Part shown: one piece after another, positions 1 to 13,943 of the stretch
Numbering within the stretch: the first letter of the stretch is position 1
How the letters are laid out: each line of letters opens with the position of its first letter
Assembly (NCBI GenBank): GCA_021158055.1
Contig: JAGGVJ010000037.1
Location: 1-14,109, forward strand
Source of the DNA: Candidatus Iainarchaeum sp.
GTDB lineage: Archaea > Iainarchaeota > Iainarchaeia > JAGGVJ01
Direction: 5' to 3'
Length of the DNA: 14,109 nt
Notes under the pieces: model-generated
Database searches by the model: none
Told to the model about the DNA's origin: nothing
Seen by the model: the letters and a program-made list of their open reading frames with translations, nothing else
Translations under genes and position numbers: made by a program

Positions 1-3000
1 AAACTTATCACTGCACTTGCCTGTTGCAGGAATGCACGCGTGGATATTGTAAACTCCGGGCGGGACTTCAACAAACACCTGCCCGTTGGTTCCGGTGAAC
101 AGACCGAACTCAGTTAAATCGCTTACCCTTGTTGCAGTTGCAGTCACTTCGCCCGAATAAGGATTTGAACAATCAGTAACTGTAATTTTGAACTGGGAAT
201 AATAACTCACGTCCCACGAGTCAAGGCTCGGGGTGCTTCCGGAAGTAAAGTTTGCCCTTAGCTTGATTGGAATGCTTCCGACAGTTTCTGAAATGTTCTG
301 GCCGTTCTTCACGTCTGCAACCAAAACCGAATCATCTGATGCATCCAAAACATCAACCGTAAGCGTTGATGCTCCGGGTGTGGTCTTTGAAAAAGTCACT
401 ACCCCCCACTTGCTGAAATTCACCGGGCTGATGACGCCTGTTGTGAAAGTACCGGTTGCTTGTCCTTCAGTTAAAACCACACTGCCAAATAACAATTCAG
501 TGTTTGAAAATAATCCATCATCCAGACTCAAACCCACAGTTGCAAGACCTGAATCGTTCACAAACACTTCTTTTGAAAACTCACTGCCCCAGTACTCACC
601 ATCAAACGCCTTTGCCAATACCTGCCACAAACCCGGCTCCCCCTCAGCAACAAACGAATAAATATTTGAAGCCTGCGCAGCCGGGTTCAGCACCTCACTT
701 CCTACCCCCTCCAAAACACGGAAATCAAATTCAATAATCGGGTCGTCGTTGGGGTCAGTTGCAGTAGCTGTTGCAGTCACTGAATCACCTAACTCAAACA
801 AAGGCGCATTCAAGGAAATTTCGGCTATTACCGGTGCGCTGAACTGTTCTTGAATACCAAACAAAGCGGTTGGTTCCAGATCTACTTGTTTTCGAATAAA
901 CACATTTAAGATATTAAACGAATTGACCGTACAGACTTCACCACCCCCCCGCTCGCTACATTGAACGGCAACAACATTATCGCCTTTACTAAGACCAGAA
1001 GTTACATCCCACGTATTTACACAGGTATTACTGCCATGACAACCACCACCACAATGACCAATGTACGAACCATTGCCTGAATAAACCCATTGACCATCAT
1101 CACTAGTAACCCTCACACTAGATGACCCAACACTCGTTACAAACACCCTTTTCCTCATATACCAATCACAATCATCACAACTGGCCCAATAATCAACAGA
1201 CGCATCTGGCAAATCAGTCCAAGTTGAATCATCAAAACCCACACTTGTCCAATCTAAAGGACCCGTACACGAAGCAGACCGGTAATACTTCCAACCAACC
1301 TCCCAATTACCCGACGAATCAAAAGTATCAACATCAGAACTCGCACTAACAGCTGACACATTACCATAATACATGAAAATGCCAGTCGAACTGTTCGCAG
1401 GAATGCTCGGCACCTTCACCCACACCTTCGTGCTTGCAGTATTACAACCCGACTCAAGCCAATAACTCAACCCACTCAAACCCAAACCATCAGCAAACCT
1501 CAAATCACCGCAATCACTGTTCATCACCCCGGCAGAAACCAAAGACGCAGAATCAAACCCAACCAACACCTGAAAATCAGCCAAATCAGAACCGCTTGTC
1601 TCAGTTATCGTAACTGATTTCCTGTAACTCCAATCACTGTCCCACCAGCCAGTTACAGGCAATTGCCCGCTGAAAACACTGCTTCTGTTGCCTTGCGCGT
1701 CAGTGGCAGTAACCTCAACCACCCACTGACCTGCACCATCAGGAATAAAAGAATACTGGTTGACTGACTGGGCTGTCGGACCCGCGAACACGCTTGAATC
1801 AGGTTTCTTCACAGTGAAAGTGTAACTGGAGATGGTCTGTGTCCCCTGCGGGTCGGTTGCAGTGGCTGTTGCGGTAACGCTTTGTCCTTCCTCTGGCAAA
1901 GCGGGGTCAAACGAAACGCTTTTGACAATAGGACTATCGCTTTGCTCTTGCGCACCGGTACTTGCAGTGGGTTCCGGGGAAGTGTATTTTCGGACACGGA
2001 CGTCATCCAGTCCGACCCCGTTTGAATCTGTAAGAGCAACATGGTTATAGAACTTACCGCTGTCTGCAAGAGCCTGGTTATATACCCCTTCCCAATCCCA
2101 TGTACTGGGTTCGTTCGTGCCATGTTTCCATATCTTAAACTTGCCGTTGTTTCCAAGCTTCTCTACCTTTACATTGAACCAGTTTCCCCTCTCGTTGTAA
2201 TAATTATATTTTGTGCTCGTGTGCAAAACATTTTCAGAACCGCCGACTTTTTCTATGAACCTGACATACTGATCACCTGAAGAATACGTGCGCATGTAAA
2301 TCTTGAGATAGTCGTTGTCTGACAAATGAATCATTCTCGGGTGATACTGGTCATTACCCGAACCGCTTCCGTGGTTTTTGACTTTAAACAACCATTCTTT
2401 TCCGCCTGACGGAACAACATTTTCCGCCGTGTAAATAACCCCCCCGTCACTTGTGCCCTTCAGATAATTGCCGGAAGCTGTCCAGGAACCACTTGCAACA
2501 GACCACCCATTGTAGCTTGCATCTTCAAAGTCATCAAAAAAGTCAAAGGTTTCTGTCGCGCTGCTTACACCATCAGCTGACTGGTTACCGTAATACAGGT
2601 AAATATTCTCCGATGAGTTTGCCTGGATCTCAGGGACCTTCACCCACGCCTTGTTGTCAGACTCCAGCCAGTAAGAAAGCTCTTTGGGAACACCACCTGT
2701 CGCAAACCTCAAATCAGCCAAGTCCAACCTTGCTTTTTCTGCATCGAAACGCTCCTGAATTTCTGCCTGGGAAAGGACACGGTTGTAAATTTTTACTTCG
2801 TCGATGGTGCCGTTGAAAAACTCACCAGCTCCACCACCATAAGCACCAATCGTGAAATTACCACCTGTCACCGGTGAAGGGACACCGCCGGCATCCAAGG
2901 TTACGTCCGCGCCATTGACGTACATTTTTCCTTTTCCTGACTGCCCAACTACTCCCAAGGCAACAATGTGATACCATTGACCCAACTCAGGAGTAAATTC

Positions 3001-5958
3001 TGTCGAGCTAATCGCTACTCCCCCCAAACTAAATCGCAAATTTGTAGATGCTTTTTCCCAATAAAATTCATAAACACCTGCGCCACCTCTTTTATCAACA
3101 ACAACGTAATAAGAATTGGTAAGATCTTCAAATTTAACCCATGCTTCAACAGTAATCTCACCAGCGGCATCCAAACTCCCATCATTTCCAGCAACAATAT
3201 AATCATCCGCGCCGTCAAACTCCAAACCACCCCCAAATTTACCAGTCGACCAAACAGGACCGTTTGTCAAAGTTCCATCATTGCCGTTCCCGGAAGAATC
3301 AGCGGCCTTCGTTCCACTGCCCTCGCTGAAATGCCAGCTTCCAACCAAACCAGAATTGTCATAAATAGCACCAGTCAAATCAACGGAAAGCGGGTAATCA
3401 GTCAAATCAGAACCGCTCGTCTCAGTTATCATAACTGATTTCCTGTAACTCCAATCACTGTCCCACCAGCCACTCACACCAACCTGCTTGCTGAAAACAC
3501 TGCTCGTGTTGCCTTGCCCATCAGTTGCAGTAACCTCAACAGTCCAAAAACCGCTTGAATCAGGAGTAAACGAATACTCATTGCCTGTCTGTGTTATAGG
3601 GCCCGCGAACACACTCGAATCAGACCTCTTCACAATAAAAGAATAACTGGAGATGCTGCCCTGCAGAACGTCCGCCAATACAGTTGCAGTCAGCACGTTG
3701 CCCTGTTCAGGCAAAGAGGGTTCAAACACCAGATCGTTTATGTATGGAAAATCGGCCTGCTGTTGCGAACCAACGCTTGTTGTCGGCTCCGGAACAACCT
3801 GTTCCCTGTACAGATCCGGATTAAAGCCGTCTTCGTACGCGGAAGGAGTTGTTGTTCCGGTCAATAAATTGTAATCCAACCTTACTCTGCCGTATCCCCC
3901 GTTGCCGCCAGCCGCCCGCGTATTTACACCCGGAGCCCCCGAACCATACGATGCAGTCACTTTTGACGATCCGATGCTGGCATTGTCTGAAACAATATAA
4001 ATGCTTCCTCCGGCACCACCCCCTCCACCTCCTGTTTCGCCGGTGTTGTCATTCGGGGCGTTTTGACCGCTTGAACTAACGGACCCGTCAACCTGAACAG
4101 AACCGGCTGAAATTAGTATTATCCCTCCGCCTGCCCCGCCGGTTCCACCGCAATCGGGGTTGTCCCCGTCACGGCCCCCGCTTCCGCCGCCTCCGCCGAA
4201 AAACAGTTCAGAAAGCTGCGGCGAACCAATCGCACTGCCACCAACGGCTGTTGTGCTCCCGCAACTCCACCCGCCGCCACATGAATAATACTTGCGCTGA
4301 CCGTTGGACCCGGCTGTTCCGTATCCTCCGCCTGCCCCGCCTTCACCTGAATGGCACCACTCGGCGTCACCGCCGCCGCCACCGGCACCGTTAGCTTGTG
4401 TGCAGCGATTTCCATAGCCTACTTGTGACTCGCCTTTTTCTCCGCCACCCCAGTTACCACAGCCGCCAAGGTCACCTCCGCGAAAACCCTTTCCTGAAGC
4501 ATCAATGCTCGCGCCCGCATTCACTAAAACGGCTGCGTTTGACCTGAAAGAAATTATTCCCCCGGTGTAACCATTCCAGGCAGGGGCAATTATACCTGCT
4601 CCCGAATCCAGCGTGACATCAGTGTAATTCGGAACCCTTACAACCTGCGCGGAAATTGAAGAAACCGAATTAAAAACCCCTGAAAAATAATCATTTTTCA
4701 GCGGCATGTCAAGGACAAGGTTTTCAGTACCACCGCCTGAAACAATTCTCCTGAATTCATAATTTCCGGCGCCATTGCCCTGCATCTGCATCACCAGTAT
4801 TTCATCGTCGTCTGAAAACCCGAAACCGTCACTGACTGTTATCAGGTTCGAACCCGCACCGGCGCCGGAAGTCAAATACGCGTAAGTGTTTACCACCGTG
4901 CCTGGTGAAGAAACCGTGAGAGCACCGTCAGAACCGCTTCCCAACACACCGAAGCTGCTCAAAAAATCACTTTTTGAATCCGCTGAAGAATTGCCGTAAT
5001 ACATGAAAATATTTGTTGAACCGTTTGCAGGAATACTCGGCACCTTCACCCAAACCCTGTTGTCTGATTCAACCCAATAAGGAATTTCCTGAACACCACC
5101 TGAATCTGCGAATCTCAAGTCCGAATAATCAAGGTTTCCCTTTGATGCATTGAAGTGATCCTGGATCTCTGCTTGGGATAAAGCACGGTCGTATATTTTT
5201 ACTTCGTCGATAAGACCCTTAAACCTGCCATACCAACCGCCCAAACCACCTATGTAAAAAGGCCTGTTTGAACCCGAGGTTGTGCTTACTGCACTTCCAT
5301 TAAATACCCCGTCTAAGTAAATAGTTGCAGTTGTTCCATCATAAGTGAATACTGCATAATGCCAATTACCCAAGGAATACTCCGTTGAACCAACAATATA
5401 TGTTGAACCCGTATACATGCCAAGCTTATTAACATTTGAACCAACTCCCGCCCCAAACCAAAGACCGGAATTTCCATCAGGAGCATGGTCAACTAACGAG
5501 GAATAAGAGTCACCATAAGAATTTGAATTAACTGACGAATAAAACCATAAAGCAACAGATATCGGTGAATTTGCCGCATAATCATAATTTTGAGTTATTA
5601 CCTTATCATCCACACCGTCAAACTGCAACCCATTCCCGAATTTTCCAGCAACCCAAACAGGACCGTTTGCCAAAGTACCGTCATTTCCGTTCCCGGAAGA
5701 ATCCCTTGCAACAGAACCGCTTCCCTCAGAAAAATGCCAGCTTCCGACCAAACCGGTGTTGTCATACAAAACATCAGTCAAATCAACCGGAACCTGAAAA
5801 TCAGTCAACTCGGAACCGGAAGAATCAGTTACCGTGATTGGTTTCCTGTAATCCCAGTCAGCATCCCACCAGGTGGCAGAAGCAGAAACTGCCTGCAATA
5901 AGAAAGCGAAAACAAAAACGCAAATCACAATTTTGTTCACATTACCTGAAAACATCAT
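1..5958 (-). CDS. Giant secreted surface protein with three DUF2341/LamG modules (partial, 3' end outside window)
   Basis: The reading frame is open without a stop from an ATG at 5958 to base 1, 1986 residues, and its C-terminus lies beyond the left edge. Residues 1-26 form a signal peptide (hydrophobic run IVICVFVFAFLL, cleavage near VSA). Three modules begin with a WWDxDWxYRK motif at about residues 30, 830 and 1436 and contain the DLRFA and YYGN motifs typical of DUF2341. Modules 1 and 2 hold an inserted LamG/concanavalin-like domain (about 68-265 and 855-1055). Residues 470-690 are glycine-rich. Ig/PKD-like linkers (TATATATDP..) lie at about 738-826, 1343-1433 and 1709-1787. Residues 1140-1330 look like another concanavalin-like sandwich and 1540-1680 like a galactose-binding domain (GFDDSTW). 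The last 190 residues are beta-rich. The protein is probably a cell-surface adhesin or glycan-binding protein. The membrane or wall anchor is not visible. A second ATG at 5955 is equally possible. Confidence 0.87.
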   Translation of the reverse strand, partial: MMFSGNVNKIVICVFVFAFLLQAVSASATWWDADWDYRKPITVTDSSGSELTDFQVPVDLTDVLYDNTGLVGSWHFSEGSGSVARDSSGNGNDGTLANGPVWVAGKFGNGLQFDGVDDKVITQNYDYAANSPISVALWFYSSVNSNSYGDSYSSLVDHAPDGNSGLWFGAGVGSNVNKLGMYTGSTYIVGSTEYSLGNWHYAVFTYDGTTATIYLDGVFNGSAVSTTSGSNRPFYIGGLGGWYGRFKGLIDEVKIYDRALSQAEIQDHFNASKGNLDYSDLRFADSGGVQEIPYWVESDNRVWVKVPSIPANGSTNIFMYYGNSSADSKSDFLSSFGVLGSGSDGALTVSSPGTVVNTYAYLTSGAGAGSNLITVSDGFGFSDDDEILVMQMQGNGAGNYEFRRIVSGGGTENLVLDMPLKNDYFSGVFNSVSSISAQVVRVPNYTDVTLDSGAGIIAPAWNGYTGGIISFRSNAAVLVNAGASIDASGKGFRGGDLGGCGNWGGGEKGESQVGYGNRCTQANGAGGGGGDAEWCHSGEGGAGGGYGTAGSNGQRKYYSCGGGWSCGSTTAVGGSAIGSPQLSELFFGGGGGSGGRDGDNPDCGGTGGAGGGIILISAGSVQVDGSVSSSGQNAPNDNTGETGGGGGGAGGSIYIVSDNASIGSSKVTASYGSGAPGVNTRAAGGNGGYGRVRLDYNLLTGTTTPSAYEDGFNPDLYREQVVPEPTTSVGSQQQADFPYINDLVFEPSLPEQGNVLTATVLADVLQGSISSYSFIVKRSDSSVFAGPITQTGNEYSFTPDSSGFWTVEVTATDGQGNTSSVFSKQVGVSGWWDSDWSYRKSVMITETSGSDLTDYPLSVDLTGAIYDNSGLVGSWHFSEGSGTKAADSSGNGNDGTLTNGPVWSTGKFGGGLEFDGADDYIVAGNDGSLDAAGEITVEAWVKFEDLTNSYYVVVDKRGGAGVYEFYWEKASTNLRFSLGGVAISSTEFTPELGQWYHIVALGVVGQSGKGKMYVNGADVTLDAGGVPSPVTGGNFTIGAYGGGAGEFFNGTIDEVKIYNRVLSQAEIQERFDAEKARLDLADLRFATGGVPKELSYWLESDNKAWVKVPEIQANSSENIYLYYGNQSADGVSSATETFDFFDDFEDASYNGWSVASGSWTASGNYLKGTSDGGVIYTAENVVPSGGKEWLFKVKNHGSGSGNDQYHPRMIHLSDNDYLKIYMRTYSSGDQYVRFIEKVGGSENVLHTSTKYNYYNERGNWFNVKVEKLGNNGKFKIWKHGTNEPSTWDWEGVYNQALADSGKFYNHVALTDSNGVGLDDVRVRKYTSPEPTASTGAQEQSDSPIVKSVSFDPALPEEGQSVTATATATDPQGTQTISSYTFTVKKPDSSVFAGPTAQSVNQYSFIPDGAGQWVVEVTATDAQGNRSSVFSGQLPVTGWWDSDWSYRKSVTITETSGSDLADFQVLVGFDSASLVSAGVMNSDCGDLRFADGLGLSGLSYWLESGCNTASTKVWVKVPSIPANSSTGIFMYYGNVSAVSASSDVDTFDSSGNWEVGWKYYRSASCTGPLDWTSVGFDDSTWTDLPDASVDYWASCDDCDWYMRKRVFVTSVGSSSVRVTSDDGQWVYSGNGSYIGHCGGGCHGSNTCVNTWDVTSGLSKGDNVVAVQCSERGGGEVCTVNSFNILNVFIRKQVDLEPTALFGIQEQFSAPVIAEISLNAPLFELGDSVTATATATDPNDDPIIEFDFRVLEGVGSEVLNPAAQASNIYSFVAEGEPGLWQVLAKAFDGEYWGSEFSKEVFVNDSGLATVGLSLDDGLFSNTELLFGSVVLTEGQATGTFTTGVISPVNFSKWGVVTFSKTTPGASTLTVDVLDASDDSVLVADVKNGQNISETVGSIPIKLRANFTSGSTPSLDSWDVSYYSQFKITVTDCSNPYSGEVTATATRVSDLTEFGLFTGTNGQVFVEVPPGVYNIHACIPATGKCSDKF
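1582..1651 (-). repeat. Near-identical intragenic repeat, copy at the start of DUF2341 module 3
   Basis: These 70 bases encode the linker and WWDSDWSYRK segment that opens module 3. By my alignment they differ at two positions from the copy at 3403-3472. The flanking domains are much more diverged, which suggests recent gene conversion or module duplication. Confidence 0.85.
3403..3472 (-). repeat. Near-identical intragenic repeat, copy at the start of DUF2341 module 2
   Basis: This is the partner of 1582-1651, with 68 of 70 bases identical. It encodes the same opening segment of module 2. A third, clearly more diverged version lies at about 5793-5875 at the start of module 1. Confidence 0.85.
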
Positions 5959-5986
5959 AAAATCACTGTTTGTCAAAAAGCACACT

Positions 5987-7246: not shown

Positions 7247-8470
7247 TCAATTTCTATTTTTTTTCAAAAAACTTTCAAGCGAAATCATATTTTCTTTATT
7301 GGTTGATTTGGTTATTAAAATAAAAGAAAATCCTTTGTGGGTTTTTTTAAAATCATCAAATCCTTTTTGTTCTCTTTCAGGTATTTCGTCTGTTGCAGTT
7401 ACATTTATGGCTGTGTTTTCAGCAATGAAATCAACCTCGGATTTCAATTCAGACCAGTAACTTATTTCCCTGCAGGACTCCAATAACTTTATAAAAACAG
7501 TATTTTCATACATCTGGCCCAAGTTTTTTGAATATTTTATGCTTGCGACATTTATCAACCCGTTGTCCAATGCATAAAATTTAGAAAGCTTTGTTATGTC
7601 GTGTTTTATTTTTGCTGAAAAAGAAAAATAAGTAACTTCAAACAAAAGATAAGCATCAACCATATAACTGACATAAAGGGAAATGGTGTCTTTTGACAAC
7701 CCGAAAACTTTCGACAACTTATTGAAACTCACTTTTGACGACGAAGTGCTAATGATATACCTTGCAATACCCATTAACTGTTTGGTGTTTCTTATGCCGT
7801 GCCTTTGAATGATATCCTTGTAGACAATATCCTCAAAATATTGCTGTAAAATAAACAATTTTTTTTCAGGGGATTTTTCCAGAACAACTTCCGGAAACCC
7901 GCCAAACTTTAAGTATTCTTCAAGCACACCTTTTTTATTGAACTCAAGAAACTCTTTAAAAGACAAAGGGAAAACTTCAAAAGACAAATTTCTGCCCGTC
8001 AACAGGGTTGAAAGTTCCTTTGACAACAAAGAAGCGCTTGAACCCGTAACCACAAATTTAATGTTTTCATTCAGATCATACTTTGTCCTGATCCACTTCT
8101 CCCAACCGTCAATTTTTTGAATTTCATCAATAAAATAATAAACCTTTCCCTTGTTTTTTAAATAATGCCAGTAGGCATTCAAAACCTGCTCCAGTAAATC
8201 TATATTTAAATTTTCTGTGAAATTATAATCCTCAAGATTCAAATACAAAATCTGCTCTTTATTTATTTTATTTTTTATTAACTTCATCATTAACTGCTTT
8301 AAAATTGTGGATTTTCCCGACCGCCTTATCCCCTTTAAAACAATGACTTCCCTGCGCTTGAAATAAGAGTAAATCTTCTCAACATAACCGGTTCTTTCAA
8401 CACCCGAATCAAACTCTTTTTCCCAAAAATTCCATCTCTTAAGAACATCAACAATGATATTTTCATCCAT
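7247..8470 (-). CDS. Archaeal AAA ATPase with DUF4143-like C-terminal domain
   Basis: 407 residues, the usual length for this family. The P-loop GIRRSGKST is at 47-55, Walker B YYFIDEIQ at 111-118, and the sensor segment VVTGSSASLL at 140-149 is followed by LLTGR. GGFPE is at 190-194, and a helix-turn-helix-like stretch (FNKLSKVFGLSKDTISLYVSYM) spans about 249-270. The C-terminal domain ends with EVDFIAE (345-351) and AINVT (354-358), the position of a PD-(D/E)XK-like core in related proteins; the usual lysine of the second strand is replaced by T. These ATPases are common and often multicopy in archaea, their substrate is unknown, and roles in defence or mobile-element biology are only suspected. 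The ATG at 8470 lies 26 bases from a TATA box, so translation is probably leaderless. It shares its architecture with the ATPase at 9580. Confidence 0.85.
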   Translation of the reverse strand: MDENIIVDVLKRWNFWEKEFDSGVERTGYVEKIYSYFKRREVIVLKGIRRSGKSTILKQLMMKLIKNKINKEQILYLNLEDYNFTENLNIDLLEQVLNAYWHYLKNKGKVYYFIDEIQKIDGWEKWIRTKYDLNENIKFVVTGSSASLLSKELSTLLTGRNLSFEVFPLSFKEFLEFNKKGVLEEYLKFGGFPEVVLEKSPEKKLFILQQYFEDIVYKDIIQRHGIRNTKQLMGIARYIISTSSSKVSFNKLSKVFGLSKDTISLYVSYMVDAYLLFEVTYFSFSAKIKHDITKLSKFYALDNGLINVASIKYSKNLGQMYENTVFIKLLESCREISYWSELKSEVDFIAENTAINVTATDEIPEREQKGFDDFKKTHKGFSFILITKSTNKENMISLESFLKKNRN

Positions 8471-9579: not shown

Positions 9580-10818
9580 GTGAAAGAAACAATTCAAAGA
9601 TGGAATATCTGGTGGGAAAACCCGCAACAGCTGAAAAAATTTATCGGCACGCAGCGAACGGCTTTGCCTTTACTGGTAAAGGAACTTAAAATCAGGCATA
9701 TTAAAGACATTATCGGGGTCAGGAGATCAGGCAAAACTGTTTTGATGTATCAGATAATGTCCAATCTTATGAATGCGGGTGTCAAACCTGAAAATATTCT
9801 TTATCTGAATTTTGATGATCCTGAATTACTGGACATTGAGGAGTCGGTAAAAAATTCTTTGCATTTAAATCCGGGTATTTCCCATGTTTTTTTTGATGAG
9901 ATTCAAAATGTTGCGGGTTGGGAAAAAATATTAAGGGTTTATTATGACAGAAAAAAATTTGAGCAGATATTTGTGTCCGGTTCTTCCGCTTCTTTGATTT
10001 CAAGAGATATCGGAAAAACCCTTACCGGAAGGCACATAACAAAAATCATCATGCCTTTTTCTTTTGAGGAATATTTAAGGCATTGCGGTGTTGAAAATCC
10101 GGGGCAGGTTTCAAACAGGGAAAAGGTAATTAATTTTCTTGAAATTTACCTTAAACACGGCGGTTTTCCCGAAACAGTCAAATCAGACAGCTTGACTTCA
10201 AAGGCAATGCTGGTCAATTTGTATAATGACATTCTTTCAAGAGACATTGTCTCAAGGTTTGATGCTGATTTTGACATAGTTAAAAAGATCGGGTATTATT
10301 TAATGACAAATATCGGTTCGCCTTTTTCTTATAACAGTGTGGCAAATGCGTTGAATTTACATTTTGACACTGTTAAAAAATATATCCCGTATTTTGAAGA
10401 GGTATTCCTTTTGGTCATCATTCATCATTTTTCATGGAAGATCAAGGTCCAGTTGAAAAAAGACATAAAGTGTTACCCCATAGATGTCGGTTTAAGAAAT
10501 GCGGTTTCATTTAAGTTTTCTGATGACCTTGGCAAACTCGCAGAAGCAACTGTTTTACTGGAGCTAAAAAGAAAAGGCTTGAACCCGTTTTTTTGGAAAG
10601 GTAAAAATGAAGTTGATTTTGTGTGCATGGAAGGCGACGAGCTGACCGCAATAAATGTAACTTATGCAGACAACATAAATAAAAGAGAAAAAAAAGGTTT
10701 ATTGGAATTCAGGGAAAAATACCCCCGCGCAAAATTAATGTTGATTACCGGGGAACTGGAAACTGTGACTGAAGAAGGCATATATTATATCCCTTTGTGG
10801 AAATGGCTGTTGGGCTAA
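9580..10818 (+). CDS. Archaeal AAA ATPase with DUF4143-like C-terminal domain (second copy)
   Basis: 412 residues, with the architecture of the ATPase at 7247-8470 but clearly diverged. The P-loop GVRRSGKT is at 46-53, Walker B VFFDEIQ at 103-109, and sensor VSGSSASLI at 132-140 is followed by LTGR. HGGFPE is at 193-198. The C-terminal EVDFV (344-348) and AINVT (357-361) again lack the usual lysine of the PD-(D/E)XK-like core, and the protein ends IPLWKWLLG. The start is GTG: an in-frame stop at 9571 excludes longer versions and a TATA box lies 25 bases upstream. The AbrB-RelE pair follows 168 bases downstream on the same strand after a T6 terminator, so it is probably a separate unit. Function beyond ATP binding is unknown. 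Confidence 0.86.
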   Translation: MKETIQRWNIWWENPQQLKKFIGTQRTALPLLVKELKIRHIKDIIGVRRSGKTVLMYQIMSNLMNAGVKPENILYLNFDDPELLDIEESVKNSLHLNPGISHVFFDEIQNVAGWEKILRVYYDRKKFEQIFVSGSSASLISRDIGKTLTGRHITKIIMPFSFEEYLRHCGVENPGQVSNREKVINFLEIYLKHGGFPETVKSDSLTSKAMLVNLYNDILSRDIVSRFDADFDIVKKIGYYLMTNIGSPFSYNSVANALNLHFDTVKKYIPYFEEVFLLVIIHHFSWKIKVQLKKDIKCYPIDVGLRNAVSFKFSDDLGKLAEATVLLELKRKGLNPFFWKGKNEVDFVCMEGDELTAINVTYADNINKREKKGLLEFREKYPRAKLMLITGELETVTEEGIYYIPLWKWLLG

Positions 10819-10972: not shown

Positions 10973-10985
10973 TTGGGTGATTTAC

Positions 10986-11252
10986 ATGGATGTCGGCATA
11001 ACTAAGATGAGCACTAAAGGCCAGATAGTTATCCCTATTGATTTAAGAGGGGAATTTGATATTGGCGAGAAACTTGTTGTCATTAAGACTGATAAAAAAT
11101 TAATCATTAAAAAGGCAAGTGAACTTGATAATAATCTCGCTGAAGATCTGGAGTTTGCAAAAAGAACTGAAGAGGCATTGCAAAGAATAGAGCATGGCAA
11201 AGGCACTGAAATGAAATTTGATGATTTTATCAGTGAGATGAAAAAATGGTAG
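10986..11252 (+). CDS. AbrB/SpoVT-family antitoxin
   Basis: 88 residues. The N-terminal half (ITKMSTKGQIVIPIDLRGEF..GEKLVV.) is the swapped-hairpin AbrB/MazE DNA-binding fold, with the TKGQIVIP signature. The C-terminal half is charged and helical (EDLEFAKRTEEALQRIEHG), as in antitoxin tails that wrap the toxin. A GTG at 10977 is in frame, but the ATG at 10986 is preferred because GGTGAT (10976-10981), complementary to the archaeal 16S tail, lies four bases upstream. The last seven bases overlap the start of the RelE-like toxin, indicating translational coupling. A palindrome between the TATA box and the start suggests autoregulation. Confidence 0.85.
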   Translation: MDVGITKMSTKGQIVIPIDLRGEFDIGEKLVVIKTDKKLIIKKASELDNNLAEDLEFAKRTEEALQRIEHGKGTEMKFDDFISEMKKW

Positions 11253-11488
11253 ATGTGATTTTTGATTTAAAATTTAAGAAAAATTTTAAAAAAATCAAAG
11301 ATGTTTCCGCCAAAAGTAAAATAATAAAACAGGTTTCTAAACTAAAAAACCACCCGGAACTGGGAAAACCCATGAGGTACGGGCGTAAAGGCACCAGAGA
11401 ACTTTACATTTCACCTTTCAGATTGTCTTATTTGATTAAAGGCAATAAGATATACTTATTGGATCTTTACCATAAAGACCTTCAATAG
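11246..11488 (+). CDS. RelE/ParE-superfamily toxin
   Basis: 80 residues with the compact RelE pattern. An N-terminal strand and lysine-rich helices (LKFKKNFKKIKD, SKIIKQVSKLKNHPELGKPM) precede R-G-x-R/ELYISPFRLSYLI and a final strand IYLLDLYHKDLQ. Proteins of this fold usually cut mRNA on the ribosome, or in the ParE branch poison gyrase. The RGTRELY-PFRLSY strand and the final YHK are in the places of RelE active-site residues. Its ATG overlaps the antitoxin stop (ATGGTAG), the classic toxin-antitoxin layout. Antitoxin first with an AbrB-type fold is a common archaeal combination. Confidence 0.82.
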   Translation: MVDVIFDLKFKKNFKKIKDVSAKSKIIKQVSKLKNHPELGKPMRYGRKGTRELYISPFRLSYLIKGNKIYLLDLYHKDLQ

Positions 11489-11611: not shown

Positions 11612-11719
11612 TCACGTTGGTTGGTCAATGGGCTTTATTTCAGGCATTATTTCCGCGTAAGGCCCTTCGGTTACCGGTTTGTTCTCAATGCATACCAACG
11701 GGTGGTTTTTTATCCTCAT
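11612..11719 (-). pseudogene. 3' half of the operon gene split by the IscB element
   Basis: From ATG at 11719 the frame reads MRIKNHPLVCIENKPVTEG and on to IKPIDQPT with a TGA at 11612, 35 codons of ordinary-looking protein directly abutting the right end of the IscB element. It lacks its own ribosome binding site. Joined to the codons ending at 13183, with the element removed, it continues the reading frame of the gene starting at 13326 and restores a protein of about 84 residues. The family is unrecognised. Whether this half is still translated is unclear. Confidence 0.6.
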
Positions 11720-12933
11720 CGTAAGACCCCTTCCGAAAGGGGTGGGATAAATTGCAATCCTTTTCCATAGCTTACCATCTCCACATTGTTGACATTTGCA
11801 TTGACTGTGGTCTTTGTTGGGTTTAGCAAACGAACCCATTGACCATGGTTGAAAATTCCTTTGACTCTGCATAATACATTGTTATGATTTACCAAATCAT
11901 TTGGCTGCAATTTGTATCTTTGCCTCCTGATACTTGGCTTAAAACCTTTTCTGTTAAGCTGAATGCTTCTGTTGTTTCGTCTTGTCTGTGTTATGTTCAG
12001 TTCTTTGGCTCTTTCCTGAATCCTGCCCTTTGCTATGACAAAAGCGTCATTGCAGTGGCTTTTCTCAAGCAATAATTTGATTCTGTTGCATTTTGTGATG
12101 TAGCCAAAAGTTGTTTCACAGTCAATAGTTTCAGCCAGTTTTTTTCTCACAATATTCATAAACGCTGTTGCATTAAGTGATTCTTTTGCCTTTACCTGAA
12201 TGTTTGGGAAGCCAAACTCTTTTGCTGTTTGATTGCCTTTTTTTTGGTTGCAGTTGTGGCAGGCAATGGTTAGGTTTGAGACTCTGTTTGAGCCGCCTCT
12301 TGACTTTGGCACAATGTGCTCTACTTCAAGCGGAACATTTGTTTTGCCGCAGTAAGCGCATTTTCTTTTGTATTTCTCAAGCAAATACTCTCTGACTGCA
12401 TAACCTTGCAGCTCCCCTTGCTGATACTCAACCCCTTTAATTTCAGGGTTCTGCATTTTTTGGGTGTCAAAAGAGGCAATTTCAATTATGGTTTTTGTTA
12501 TCGGCAAAATCCTTTTCAGTTTTTCAATAAACCGGATGTGAGTGTCAAGCTTGTGCTGAATGCTTGGCGCAAACCAGCCTTTGCTTTTGGCTCTGTTGTC
12601 AAACCTTGGTTCCCTATGCCACAGTTTTGCTCTTCTGGTTCTTCTGTAATTGCCTTTTTGCTCTATCAGTTTTTTGATGTTGTTTCTTAGTGTCACTTCT
12701 CCCACAATCAACTCTGCTTTTTTTGTTATTGCACTGAAACCTATTTTTGAGTAACCGGAGTCAATGCCTAAAGTTATGTTTTGTTTGTTTTCTCCTGTTG
12801 CGTATTTCAATTGTATTGCAAACGGGTTTCTTTGTATTACCTCCGCTTTGTTTTGCTTTAGTAGCCTGTATGCTTTTCCCGGTGTTGTGGGCATTAGTGG
12901 TTTGCCACGCATGTTTAAGACAAATACTCTCAA
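11716..12933 (-). CDS. iscB: IscB RNA-guided HNH/RuvC nuclease
   Basis: 405 residues from TTG at 12933, the normal IscB size. The N-terminal PLMP motif is at 12-15 (VFVLNMRGKPLMPTTPGKA). RuvC-I LGIDSGYSKIG has D58. The arginine-rich bridge helix YRRTRRAKLWHREPRFDNR is at 96-114. RuvC-II IIEIASFD has E151. The HNH domain has CAYCGK (C192, C195), catalytic H206 in EVEHIVPKSRGG, N220, and CHNC (C225, C228). RuvC-III HCNDAFVIA has H293 and D296. A basic C-terminal target-motif-interaction domain (RKGFKPSIRRQRYKLQPNDL, then VKGIFNHGQW) follows. All catalytic residues are present. IscB cuts double-stranded DNA guided by an omega-RNA. The frame is open further upstream to 13122, but that part folds as RNA and is unlike IscB; TTG follows an AGGAG-like site. 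The C-terminus is encoded by the right-end hairpin and the stop lies in the flanking ATGA. Confidence 0.92.
   Translation of the reverse strand: MRVFVLNMRGKPLMPTTPGKAYRLLKQNKAEVIQRNPFAIQLKYATGENKQNITLGIDSGYSKIGFSAITKKAELIVGEVTLRNNIKKLIEQKGNYRRTRRAKLWHREPRFDNRAKSKGWFAPSIQHKLDTHIRFIEKLKRILPITKTIIEIASFDTQKMQNPEIKGVEYQQGELQGYAVREYLLEKYKRKCAYCGKTNVPLEVEHIVPKSRGGSNRVSNLTIACHNCNQKKGNQTAKEFGFPNIQVKAKESLNATAFMNIVRKKLAETIDCETTFGYITKCNRIKLLLEKSHCNDAFVIAKGRIQERAKELNITQTRRNNRSIQLNRKGFKPSIRRQRYKLQPNDLVNHNNVLCRVKGIFNHGQWVRLLNPTKTTVNANVNNVEMVSYGKGLQFIPPLSEGVLR
11727..11742 (-). repeat. Right-end hairpin of the IscB element
   Basis: CCCCTT and AAGGGG form a perfect 6-base stem with a four-base loop. It lies eight bases inside the ATGA flank and is the kind of subterminal hairpin bound by TnpA in IS200/IS605 elements. 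It is also read as the last codons of iscB. Confidence 0.65.
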
Positions 12934-13200
12934 GTTTTGCCTGCTCCTGCCGGAGCATTGGTTCTCATCGGAGTTGTTATCAGCCAGTACTTTACAGGGC
13001 ACACTGAGAGTTTCCTCTCTGTTTAATACCTCGTTTACAGAGCAGGGAACTTGAGAAGCATTCCCTGGTGCGTTCTTAAACTCTACTGATAACTTCTGCA
13101 TATTTCTTTGCCTCCTAATCAACTAATTGCTCTCAAACCTCACAGTTCAAGCCCCATCCGTTAGGGTGGGGTAATTGACTTCACAGCCGGCTGATTTTTT
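12934..13200 (-). ncRNA. Omega-RNA (HEARO-type) of IscB, with 5' guide from the flanking gene
   Basis: The region directly upstream of iscB contains nested perfect stems. A long-range 8-base stem (CTGATAAC/GTTATCAG at 12976-12983 and 13086-13093) encloses a GAAA-capped GAGAG/CTCTC hairpin (13006-13019) and a CAGGGAA/TTCCCTG hairpin (13043-13067). A GCTCC/GGAGC hairpin (12943-12956) lies just before the TTG start and the left-end hairpin (13152-13171) lies at the 5' side. This matches the known position of HEARO/omega-RNA upstream of IscB. The guide would be the 15-20 bases upstream of the element, ending near 13183 (AAATCAGCCGGCTGT). The precise RNA ends are inferred. Confidence 0.72.
13152..13171 (-). 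repeat. Left-end hairpin of the IscB element
   Basis: CCCCATCC and GGGTGGGG (plus-strand reading) pair with one G-T wobble around GTTA. The hairpin starts about ten bases inside the left boundary and its loop-side sequence (CCCTAACGG) resembles the right-end hairpin (CCCTTTCGG). Confidence 0.65.
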
Positions 13201-13326
13201 TAATCTTACGATGTATTTTTCGTACGGGTTTTTGCGTTTTACCCAAAGCGGCTGTTCTTTGCATTCGGCAAGAAAAACATTTCCGATCAAGCATTTTGAG
13301 CCGGTCAAAACATCACTCAACAACAT
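13181..13326 (-). pseudogene. 5' half of the operon gene split by the IscB element
   Basis: The frame opens with ATG at 13326, overlapping the end of the winged-helix gene by 14 bases, and encodes MLLSDVLTGSKCLIGNVFLA, then ECKEQPLWVKRKNPYEKY and IVRLKKSAGC, 48 residues to 13183. It then enters the IscB element and stops after about 11 foreign codons at 13147. Removing the element appends the 35 codons at 11719-11615 in frame, giving about 84 residues with three to four cysteines. I do not recognise the protein. Its close coupling to the upstream gene suggests that all three operon products act together. Confidence 0.65.
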
Positions 13327-13603
13327 TTATTTTGTTTTCTTTTTTTAACTGGTTTAAAATCAGTTTTGTTTCAACAGTGTCCAAGTCAAATTCTTCTGAA
13401 ATTTCAGATAAGTATGCTTTCTTTTTTTTCTGAATGAACAGCATGACTTTTTCTTTGTTTTCGTTTACTTCAAACAATTCCTTATCCGTGTTGGTAAGCA
13501 AAACTCCGTTTATCGAATCAATCGGGAACCTCGCACCCAGCTTAACAAGTTTTAATTGCGGAACAAGCCATTCGTGATTCAAATCATTGGTTTTTGCTTT
13601 CAA
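13313..13603 (-). CDS. Small protein with C-terminal winged-helix domain
   Basis: 96 residues. The C-terminal 45 (VMLFIQKKKKAYLSEISEEF, then DLDTVETKLILNQLKKENKI) form a helix-turn-helix followed by a short wing, as in many archaeal winged-helix regulators. The N-terminal half (WLVPQLKLVKLGARFPIDSI, then NGVLLTN) is unrecognised. The start is TTG at 13603, overlapping the preceding gene by 20 bases, with GGGTGG a few bases upstream. Its stop overlaps the next gene by 14 bases. It could be a transcriptional regulator of this operon or a protein-binding wing domain, as in archaeal ESCRT- or Smc-associated proteins; the sequence does not decide. Confidence 0.65.
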   Translation of the reverse strand: MKAKTNDLNHEWLVPQLKLVKLGARFPIDSINGVLLTNTDKELFEVNENKEKVMLFIQKKKKAYLSEISEEFDLDTVETKLILNQLKKENKINVVE

Positions 13604-13943
13604 TCAATCCACCCAGTTCTTTTTCGATTTTTTTAGCGAATTTGTCGATGTCTGTTGCCAGTGTTTCTTTTTCTTCATTTGTCAAATCAAACAATTTGTT
13701 CATCCTGCTTCCCAGAAGAGATGCTTCGACAAGAACGGAAAACAAGACTGTTTTTACATTGTCCGGCACTTCGCTTGACAACGAAACCAGTACTTTCGGG
13801 TCGTCTTTAAGCTCTTTTATGACTTCGTATTCTTTTGGAAATTTTTTTTCTATGTTTGCCAGTAATTCAACTGATTTAGAAGAACCAATCAAAAACTCCT
13901 TGTAAAACTTTATCATCTCTATTCCAAATTCTTCTTTCGTCAT
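13584..13943 (-). CDS. Helical protein of unknown function
   Basis: 119 residues, predicted almost entirely alpha-helical and charged, without signal peptide or membrane segment. I do not recognise a family. An N-terminal helix (EFGIEMIKFYKEFLIG) precedes a lysine-rich segment and an amphipathic C-terminal helix (DKFAKKIEKELGGLIES) that could support coiled-coil contacts. The ATG at 13943 has GGTGA (13952-13948) four bases upstream, a good archaeal ribosome binding site. It is the first gene of a tightly overlapping three-gene operon with the winged-helix protein and the split gene. Confidence 0.65.
   Translation of the reverse strand: MTKEEFGIEMIKFYKEFLIGSSKSVELLANIEKKFPKEYEVIKELKDDPKVLVSLSSEVPDNVKTVLFSVLVEASLLGSRMNKLFDLTNEEKETLATDIDKFAKKIEKELGGLIESKNQ

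What the first reader, a model, noticed from the sequence alone, without database searches (positions are those of the whole stretch)
11612..13326. IscB element splits an operon gene, and excision would rejoin it in frame at a guide-plus-ATGA target
Seen: codons up to 13183 (ending KSAGC) and codons from 11719 (starting MRIKNHP) are both ordinary protein, in compatible phase, on the two sides of an element with terminal hairpins and iscB. The joined product is about 84 residues. Known: the IscB omega-RNA carries its guide at the 5' end, taken from DNA next to the left end, and the target motif is 3' of the target; HEARO elements are reported, from memory, next to ATGA or GTGA. Inference: the guide ending AAATCAGCCGGCTGT followed by ATGA at 11719 is exactly the empty site, so the nuclease would cut the healed allele and favour retention of the element in this gene.
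Basis: partly seen in the sequence, partly recalled or inferred. Interest (0 to 1): 0.92.

Follow-up and report, generated by a model that had tools for sequence, protein, structure and literature searches.

The report
IscB element interrupting a small gene
A mobile DNA element that carries IscB, the RNA-guided DNA cutter ancestral to Cas9, sits inside a small archaeal operon gene; removing it would restore the gene in frame, but at a slightly different spot (…GAA|ATAA) than first proposed, and relatives of the element tend to sit exactly at gene starts and ends.

Summary
Confirmed: a HEARO omega-RNA (12957-13179, minus strand, 117.9 bits) and an intact iscB (11716-13122) form an IS200/IS605-type element inside an operon, and the open frames on its two sides are in phase. 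Both halves score as coding in that one frame.

Corrected: comparison with 67 related elements puts the left edge at 13179|13180, so the guide ends ..GGCTGTGAA, 3 nt further in than stated. The right edge is most likely 11714|11713 with target-adjacent motif ATAA, not ATGA at 11719. Right-end loop bases covary with the motif (T with ATAA, 8/8; C with RTGR, 42/43) and the window has the ATAA type. The three nearest IscBs use ATAA, and iscB's stop codon overlaps the ATGA. Frame is kept either way; the healed protein is 82 residues, not 84.

Not shown: an intact homologue, excision, or cleavage. The genome has no Y1 transposase and the element's right-end outer stem is broken, so it is probably stranded.

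By-product: among 50 RTGA-type relatives, 27 abut a start codon (9.9% expected; 15.5% for sites outside ORFs) and 11 rebuild an ATGA stop/start overlap. The window element is a minority, in-gene case. The mechanism itself is known for this family.

The parts
11714..13179 (-). whole element, GTCA... to ...TTACGATGAGG (1466 bp)
   Evidence: left edge from relatives with different flanks; right edge from right-end structure, spacing and loop/motif covariation
12957..13179 (-). HEARO omega-RNA scaffold
   Evidence: Rfam RF02033, 117.9 bits, E 2.2e-24, model 1-211 complete
13180..13196 (-). guide segment (host DNA next to the left end), AATCAGCCGGCTGTGAA
   Evidence: position next to the RNA's 5' end; unique in the genome, next best match has 3 mismatches
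11716..13122 (-). iscB, 468 aa; the ORF starts with TTG inside the omega-RNA region
   Evidence: NCBIfam guided_IscB E 1.3e-114; Pfam RRXRR and HNH; solved TbaIscB E 4e-51; RuvC-I Asp and HNH His present
11714..11760 (-). right end: inner hairpin kept, outer stem lost (about 7 nt missing next to the Woesearchaeal L010)
   Evidence: sequence comparison and DNA fold
11710..11713 (-). target-adjacent motif ATAA in the right flank (best-supported)
   Evidence: right-end loop class and nearest relatives
11716..11719 (-).
13180..13326 (-). 5' part of the interrupted gene, 49 codons (MLLSDV...KKSAGCE)
   Evidence: coding score 0.133, only coding-like frame; weak match to the third gene of the syntenic operon in L099
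11612..11713 (-). 3' part of the interrupted gene, 33 codons plus stop (IKNHPLVCIENK...DQPT)
   Evidence: coding score 0.318 in the joined frame only
13313..13603 (-). operon gene 2 (96 aa), overlapping the interrupted gene
   Evidence: relatives in G050, G024 (E 5e-4 to 6e-4) and weaker in G075, G023; the G075 and G023 copies follow gene 1
13584..13943 (-). operon gene 1 (119 aa)
   Evidence: homologues G075 (E 1e-19) and G023 (E 1e-17), each followed by gene 2 and a third gene

Best explanation
An IS200/IS605-type element without its own transposase, carrying iscB and its omega-RNA, inserted without target duplication into the third gene of a small archaeal operon, between ..GGCTGTGAA and ATAAAAAA. 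The omega-RNA is expected to take its guide from the left flank, so IscB would recognise guide plus ATAA, that is, the empty allele, and cut it, favouring chromosomes that keep the element (the retention model known for this family; inferred here). Shown by sequence: the element's parts, its left edge, an intact nuclease, and two coding halves in phase. Well supported but inferred: the right edge and ATAA. Inferred only: guide processing, cleavage and retention. The copy is probably no longer able to move by itself, since the genome has no Y1 transposase and its right-end outer stem is broken.
For: HEARO 117.9 bits; IscB equivalog hit and intact catalytic residues; left edge constant at GTCA. 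Across relatives the right-end 3' loop base covaries with the motif (T/ATAA 8/8, C/RTGR 42/43, Fisher 1.4e-8), and the window has the ATAA-type loops (TTTA.., TCTT). The nearest IscBs L013, L009 and L010 all use ATAA (L013 read by eye). Both halves are coding in one frame. The left half matches L099 gene 3 (shuffle p 0.0005-0.004). Upstream ORFs of 162 and 102 codons in L009 and L010 end exactly at the TAA rebuilt by the same junction rule.
Against: No intact homologue of the joined protein in 87 genomes of the class or in the genome, viral and plasmid collections. The right half has no significant match on its own. In about half of the RTGA relatives the insertion lies at a gene start, so an in-gene site is not the usual kind. 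At least one relative (L019) has flanks that do not rejoin into a gene. The window's right end is degenerate, so its edge is read from partial signals.
Confidence: 0.75

Rival explanations
1. The right edge is: TTACG|ATGA with an ATGA motif, an 84-residue healed protein, and iscB's stop codon completed by host DNA.
For: ATGA is the commonest motif in the wider family; L010 also reads TTACG-ATGA.
Against: The loop bases and spacing are of the ATAA class; L010 itself fits ATAA at normal spacing; the nearest relatives use ATAA; iscB's stop would lie outside the element, unlike the relatives checked.
Confidence: 0.18
2. The right-hand ORF is not the end of the interrupted gene but a separate short ORF starting at the ATG, coupled to iscB through the ATGA overlap, as in the many relatives that abut a start codon.
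For: 27 of 50 RTGA relatives abut a start codon.
Against: The ORF would have only 35 codons; the left ORF has no stop of its own before the junction, is in phase and is coding-like.
Confidence: 0.12
3. The flanks are not the original empty site: an element-side deletion or rearrangement removed host DNA, so removal would not restore a real gene.
For: L019 shows a truncated HtpX-like left flank with an unrelated right flank; L099 gene 3 is longer than the joined protein.
Against: Both halves are coding and in phase; in about a quarter of RTGA relatives (13/50) the joined flanks rebuild the end of a long ORF exactly.
Confidence: 0.15

Closest known systems
HEARO / IscB (OMEGA) elements, e.g. OgeuIscB and TbaIscB
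   Same: omega-RNA upstream of iscB, RuvC and HNH domains with catalytic residues, guide side at the RNA's 5' end, motif on the far flank; ATAAAA fits published IscB motifs such as NTAAA (PMC13180657)
   Different: archaeal lineage; broken right end; lies inside a gene; only IscB/HEARO found in its 87-genome phylum sample
IS200/IS605 elements with TnpB
   Same: insertion without duplication next to a short motif read by a loop beside a terminal hairpin; RNA-guided nuclease said to aid retention (PMC11870625)
   Different: IscB instead of TnpB, guide at the RNA's 5' end, no transposase in the element or the genome
IStrons (group I intron plus IS605)
   Same: insertion in a gene with a question of harmlessness (PMC4227781)
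   Different: no group I intron found; nothing suggests RNA splicing

Membership tests
HEARO/IscB element | HEARO RNA next to the gene | tested here: met
   117.9 bits against a cut-off of 83, full model
HEARO/IscB element | IscB protein with RuvC and HNH active sites | tested here: met
   NF040563 382.5 bits against a cut-off of 175; Asp and His present
HEARO/IscB element | edges: GTCA start, motif after the right end | tested here: met
   which motif (ATAA or ATGA) is inferred
HEARO/IscB element | RNA-guided cutting of the empty site | not testable with these tools
   needs protein, RNA and DNA in vitro
mobile IS200/IS605 element | Y1 transposase in the element or the genome | tested here: not met
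   PF01797: none in the window's genome at E<=1; 10 of 14 control genomes ring
mobile IS200/IS605 element | intact terminal hairpin with outer stem | tested here: not met
   outer stem absent in the window, present in L009 and L010
IStron | group I intron RNA | tested here: not met
   the only Rfam match in the window is HEARO

The most novel reading that the evidence does not exclude
HEARO/IscB elements as a family favour, or survive mainly at, translation start and stop codons: their motif RTGA doubles as start codon and stop/start overlap, the loop beside the right-end hairpin spells it, and the omega-RNA's 5' hairpin usually supplies a stop codon in exactly the frame that an upstream gene ending at the motif needs. 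This would make insertion nearly harmless in operons.
Probability: 0.5. Interest if true: 0.6.

Novelty: new member of a known kind. Interest (0 to 1): 0.42.

Why it matters
It gives a concrete, testable IscB target in an archaeal lineage where the nuclease is otherwise absent. It also shows how to read the insertion edge and the motif from the right-end loops. If the start/stop-codon pattern holds, it explains how elements of this family spread through compact operons at little cost, and it predicts motifs for uncharacterised IscBs from sequence alone.

Tried and rejected
Homology search for the joined protein in own class, all-species genome contigs, viral contigs and plasmids: no true hit; L089 is a chance 8-mer match. 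Pfam and PDB searches of the joined protein: nothing. An alignment of the joined protein to L096/L097 gene 3 crossing the junction is only marginal (p 0.02-0.07) and is not used as proof. Viral scan with operon gene 1: none. No second match to the guide in the genome better than 3 mismatches. I first accepted ATGA as the right flank and dropped it for the window and L010 once the spacing and loop rule were clear. Papers by Weinberg 2009, Kapitonov, Altae-Tran 2021 and Meers 2023 are not held, so whether the start-codon pattern has been noted there is unchecked.

Full report
Observation. The window (contig 15 of a 1.15 Mb, 94.9%-complete genome) carries, on the minus strand, a complete HEARO RNA at 12957-13179 and an iscB of 468 residues at 11716-13122. 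The RuvC-I aspartate and the HNH histidine are present where the solved TbaIscB chain has alanine. Neither HEARO nor IscB was found in any other of the 87 genomes held for its class, which is also all that is held for its phylum. No Y1 transposase is found in the genome, although 10 of 14 control genomes ring.

Left edge. In 17 relatives whose flanks differ, the element begins at GTCA and the preceding bases vary freely; the same holds for most of the wider set. The window's element therefore begins at 13179 and the guide reads ..AATCAGCCGGCTGTGAA, three bases longer than in the finding. The codon phase is unchanged.

Right edge. After iscB, relatives share an outer stem (commonly N3CAA..TTGN3) around an inner hairpin, then a spacer of mostly 7-8 nt (range 5-10), then RTGA, RTGG or ATAA. 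The second-last base of the 3' internal loop is T in all 8 elements with ATAA and C in 42 of 43 with RTGR (Fisher p = 1.4e-8). GTGA elements tend to have a C, and ATGA elements a T, at the first loop position. This looks like the loop-to-target pairing known from IS200/IS605 elements (my knowledge, not retested). The window's loops (5' TTTA, 3' TCTT) are of the ATAA type. Its three nearest IscBs by tree path (L013, L009, L010) all use ATAA (the window's place is not a strongly supported clade). ATAA lies at 11713-11710, and iscB's stop codon (11718-11716) then falls inside the element. The outer stem has lost about 7 nt compared with L010 and no longer forms. I put about 0.8 on ATAA and 0.18 on ATGA.

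Do the halves belong together? With codon usage trained on 257 long ORFs of the same genome, the left 49 codons and right 33 codons score as coding in the joined frame and in no other. The operon's first gene has clear homologues in two other genera, each followed by a gene-2 homologue and a third gene. The left half resembles the third gene of one of them, L099 (shuffle p 0.0005-0.004); the right half has no significant match. So interruption of one gene is likely but not proven, and the healed product would be 82 residues.

How it works. Insertion without duplication means that any precise excision restores the frame; no design is needed. The omega-RNA should carry the left flank, so guide plus ATAA equals the empty site, and cutting it would favour retention. 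This is the model described for TnpB (PMC11870625), and published IscB motifs include NTAAA (PMC13180657). None of these steps was shown here. With no transposase and a broken right end, this copy is probably stranded.

Wider pattern. I collected 67 distinct elements with both edges, from 20 HEARO-bearing genomes and the earlier loci. Of 50 with RTGA, 27 have that RTGA as a start codon (ORF of at least 60 codons, in-frame stop within 60 codons upstream) against 9.9% of 4785 RTGA sites in their own flanks (p = 8e-15). Even compared with RTGA sites outside ORFs (15.5%), p = 4e-10. Taking one element per genome, 13 of 23 (p = 7e-6). In 11 the joined flanks rebuild an ATGA stop/start overlap (0.75% expected, p = 1e-13). 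In 40 of 67 the element offers a stop codon within 25 nt in the frame needed by such an upstream gene, against 9 and 10 in the other two frames. In annotated plasmids, three of the iscB elements read directly abut annotated starts (L293 metallophosphoesterase, L294 thioredoxin, L295 hypothetical). Caveats: start codons are called by simple ORF rules, many genomes are draft MAGs, copies within a genome are related, some right ends were set by eye, and selection against harmful insertions may explain the pattern. The window itself is an in-gene case.

Verdict. A good observation with the edges off by 3 and 6 nt; an ordinary member of a known kind, with a potentially new family-wide insertion pattern found on the way.

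Noticed in passing
L009-L248 (67 elements): HEARO/IscB elements with RTGA motifs mostly abut start codons or stop/start overlaps (27/50 and 11/50).
   Followed up: partly
right ends of the same elements: Loop bases of the right-end hairpin covary with the motif (ATAA, RTGA, RTGG), so the motif can be predicted from the element.
   Followed up: partly
L172-L205 (G097, Borrarchaeum weybense): One archaeal genome holds 36 HEARO copies; several are elements of about 380-410 nt with both ends but no iscB (L174, L176, L177, L180, L181, L187, L196, L202).
   Followed up: partly
first 25 nt of the elements: A stop codon sits at about nt 17-19 in the frame an upstream gene ending at the motif would use (40/67 against 9 and 10 in other frames).
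   Followed up: partly
L019: Left flank is a truncated HtpX-like gene and the right flank starts an unrelated short zinc-ribbon ORF, so flanks do not always rejoin.
   Followed up: no
window 10977-11488: AbrB/MazE-like antitoxin plus RelE/ParE-like toxin pair, convergent with the interrupted operon.
   Followed up: no
L129 (G000:C24:2983-3267): Weak second copy of operon gene 1 in the same genome, followed two genes on by a RelE-like ORF.
   Followed up: no
window 1-5985 (-): Very large open frame (1995 aa, runs off the contig) with repeated LamG-like and glycine-rich stretches: probable surface protein.
   Followed up: no
L011, L013: A MAG labelled Actinomycetes carries IscBs that group with the archaeal ATAA-type set; transfer or mis-binning.
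   Followed up: no
window 7247-8470 (-) and 9580-10818 (+): Two AAA_14/DUF4143 ATPase genes flank a methyltransferase gene.
   Followed up: no
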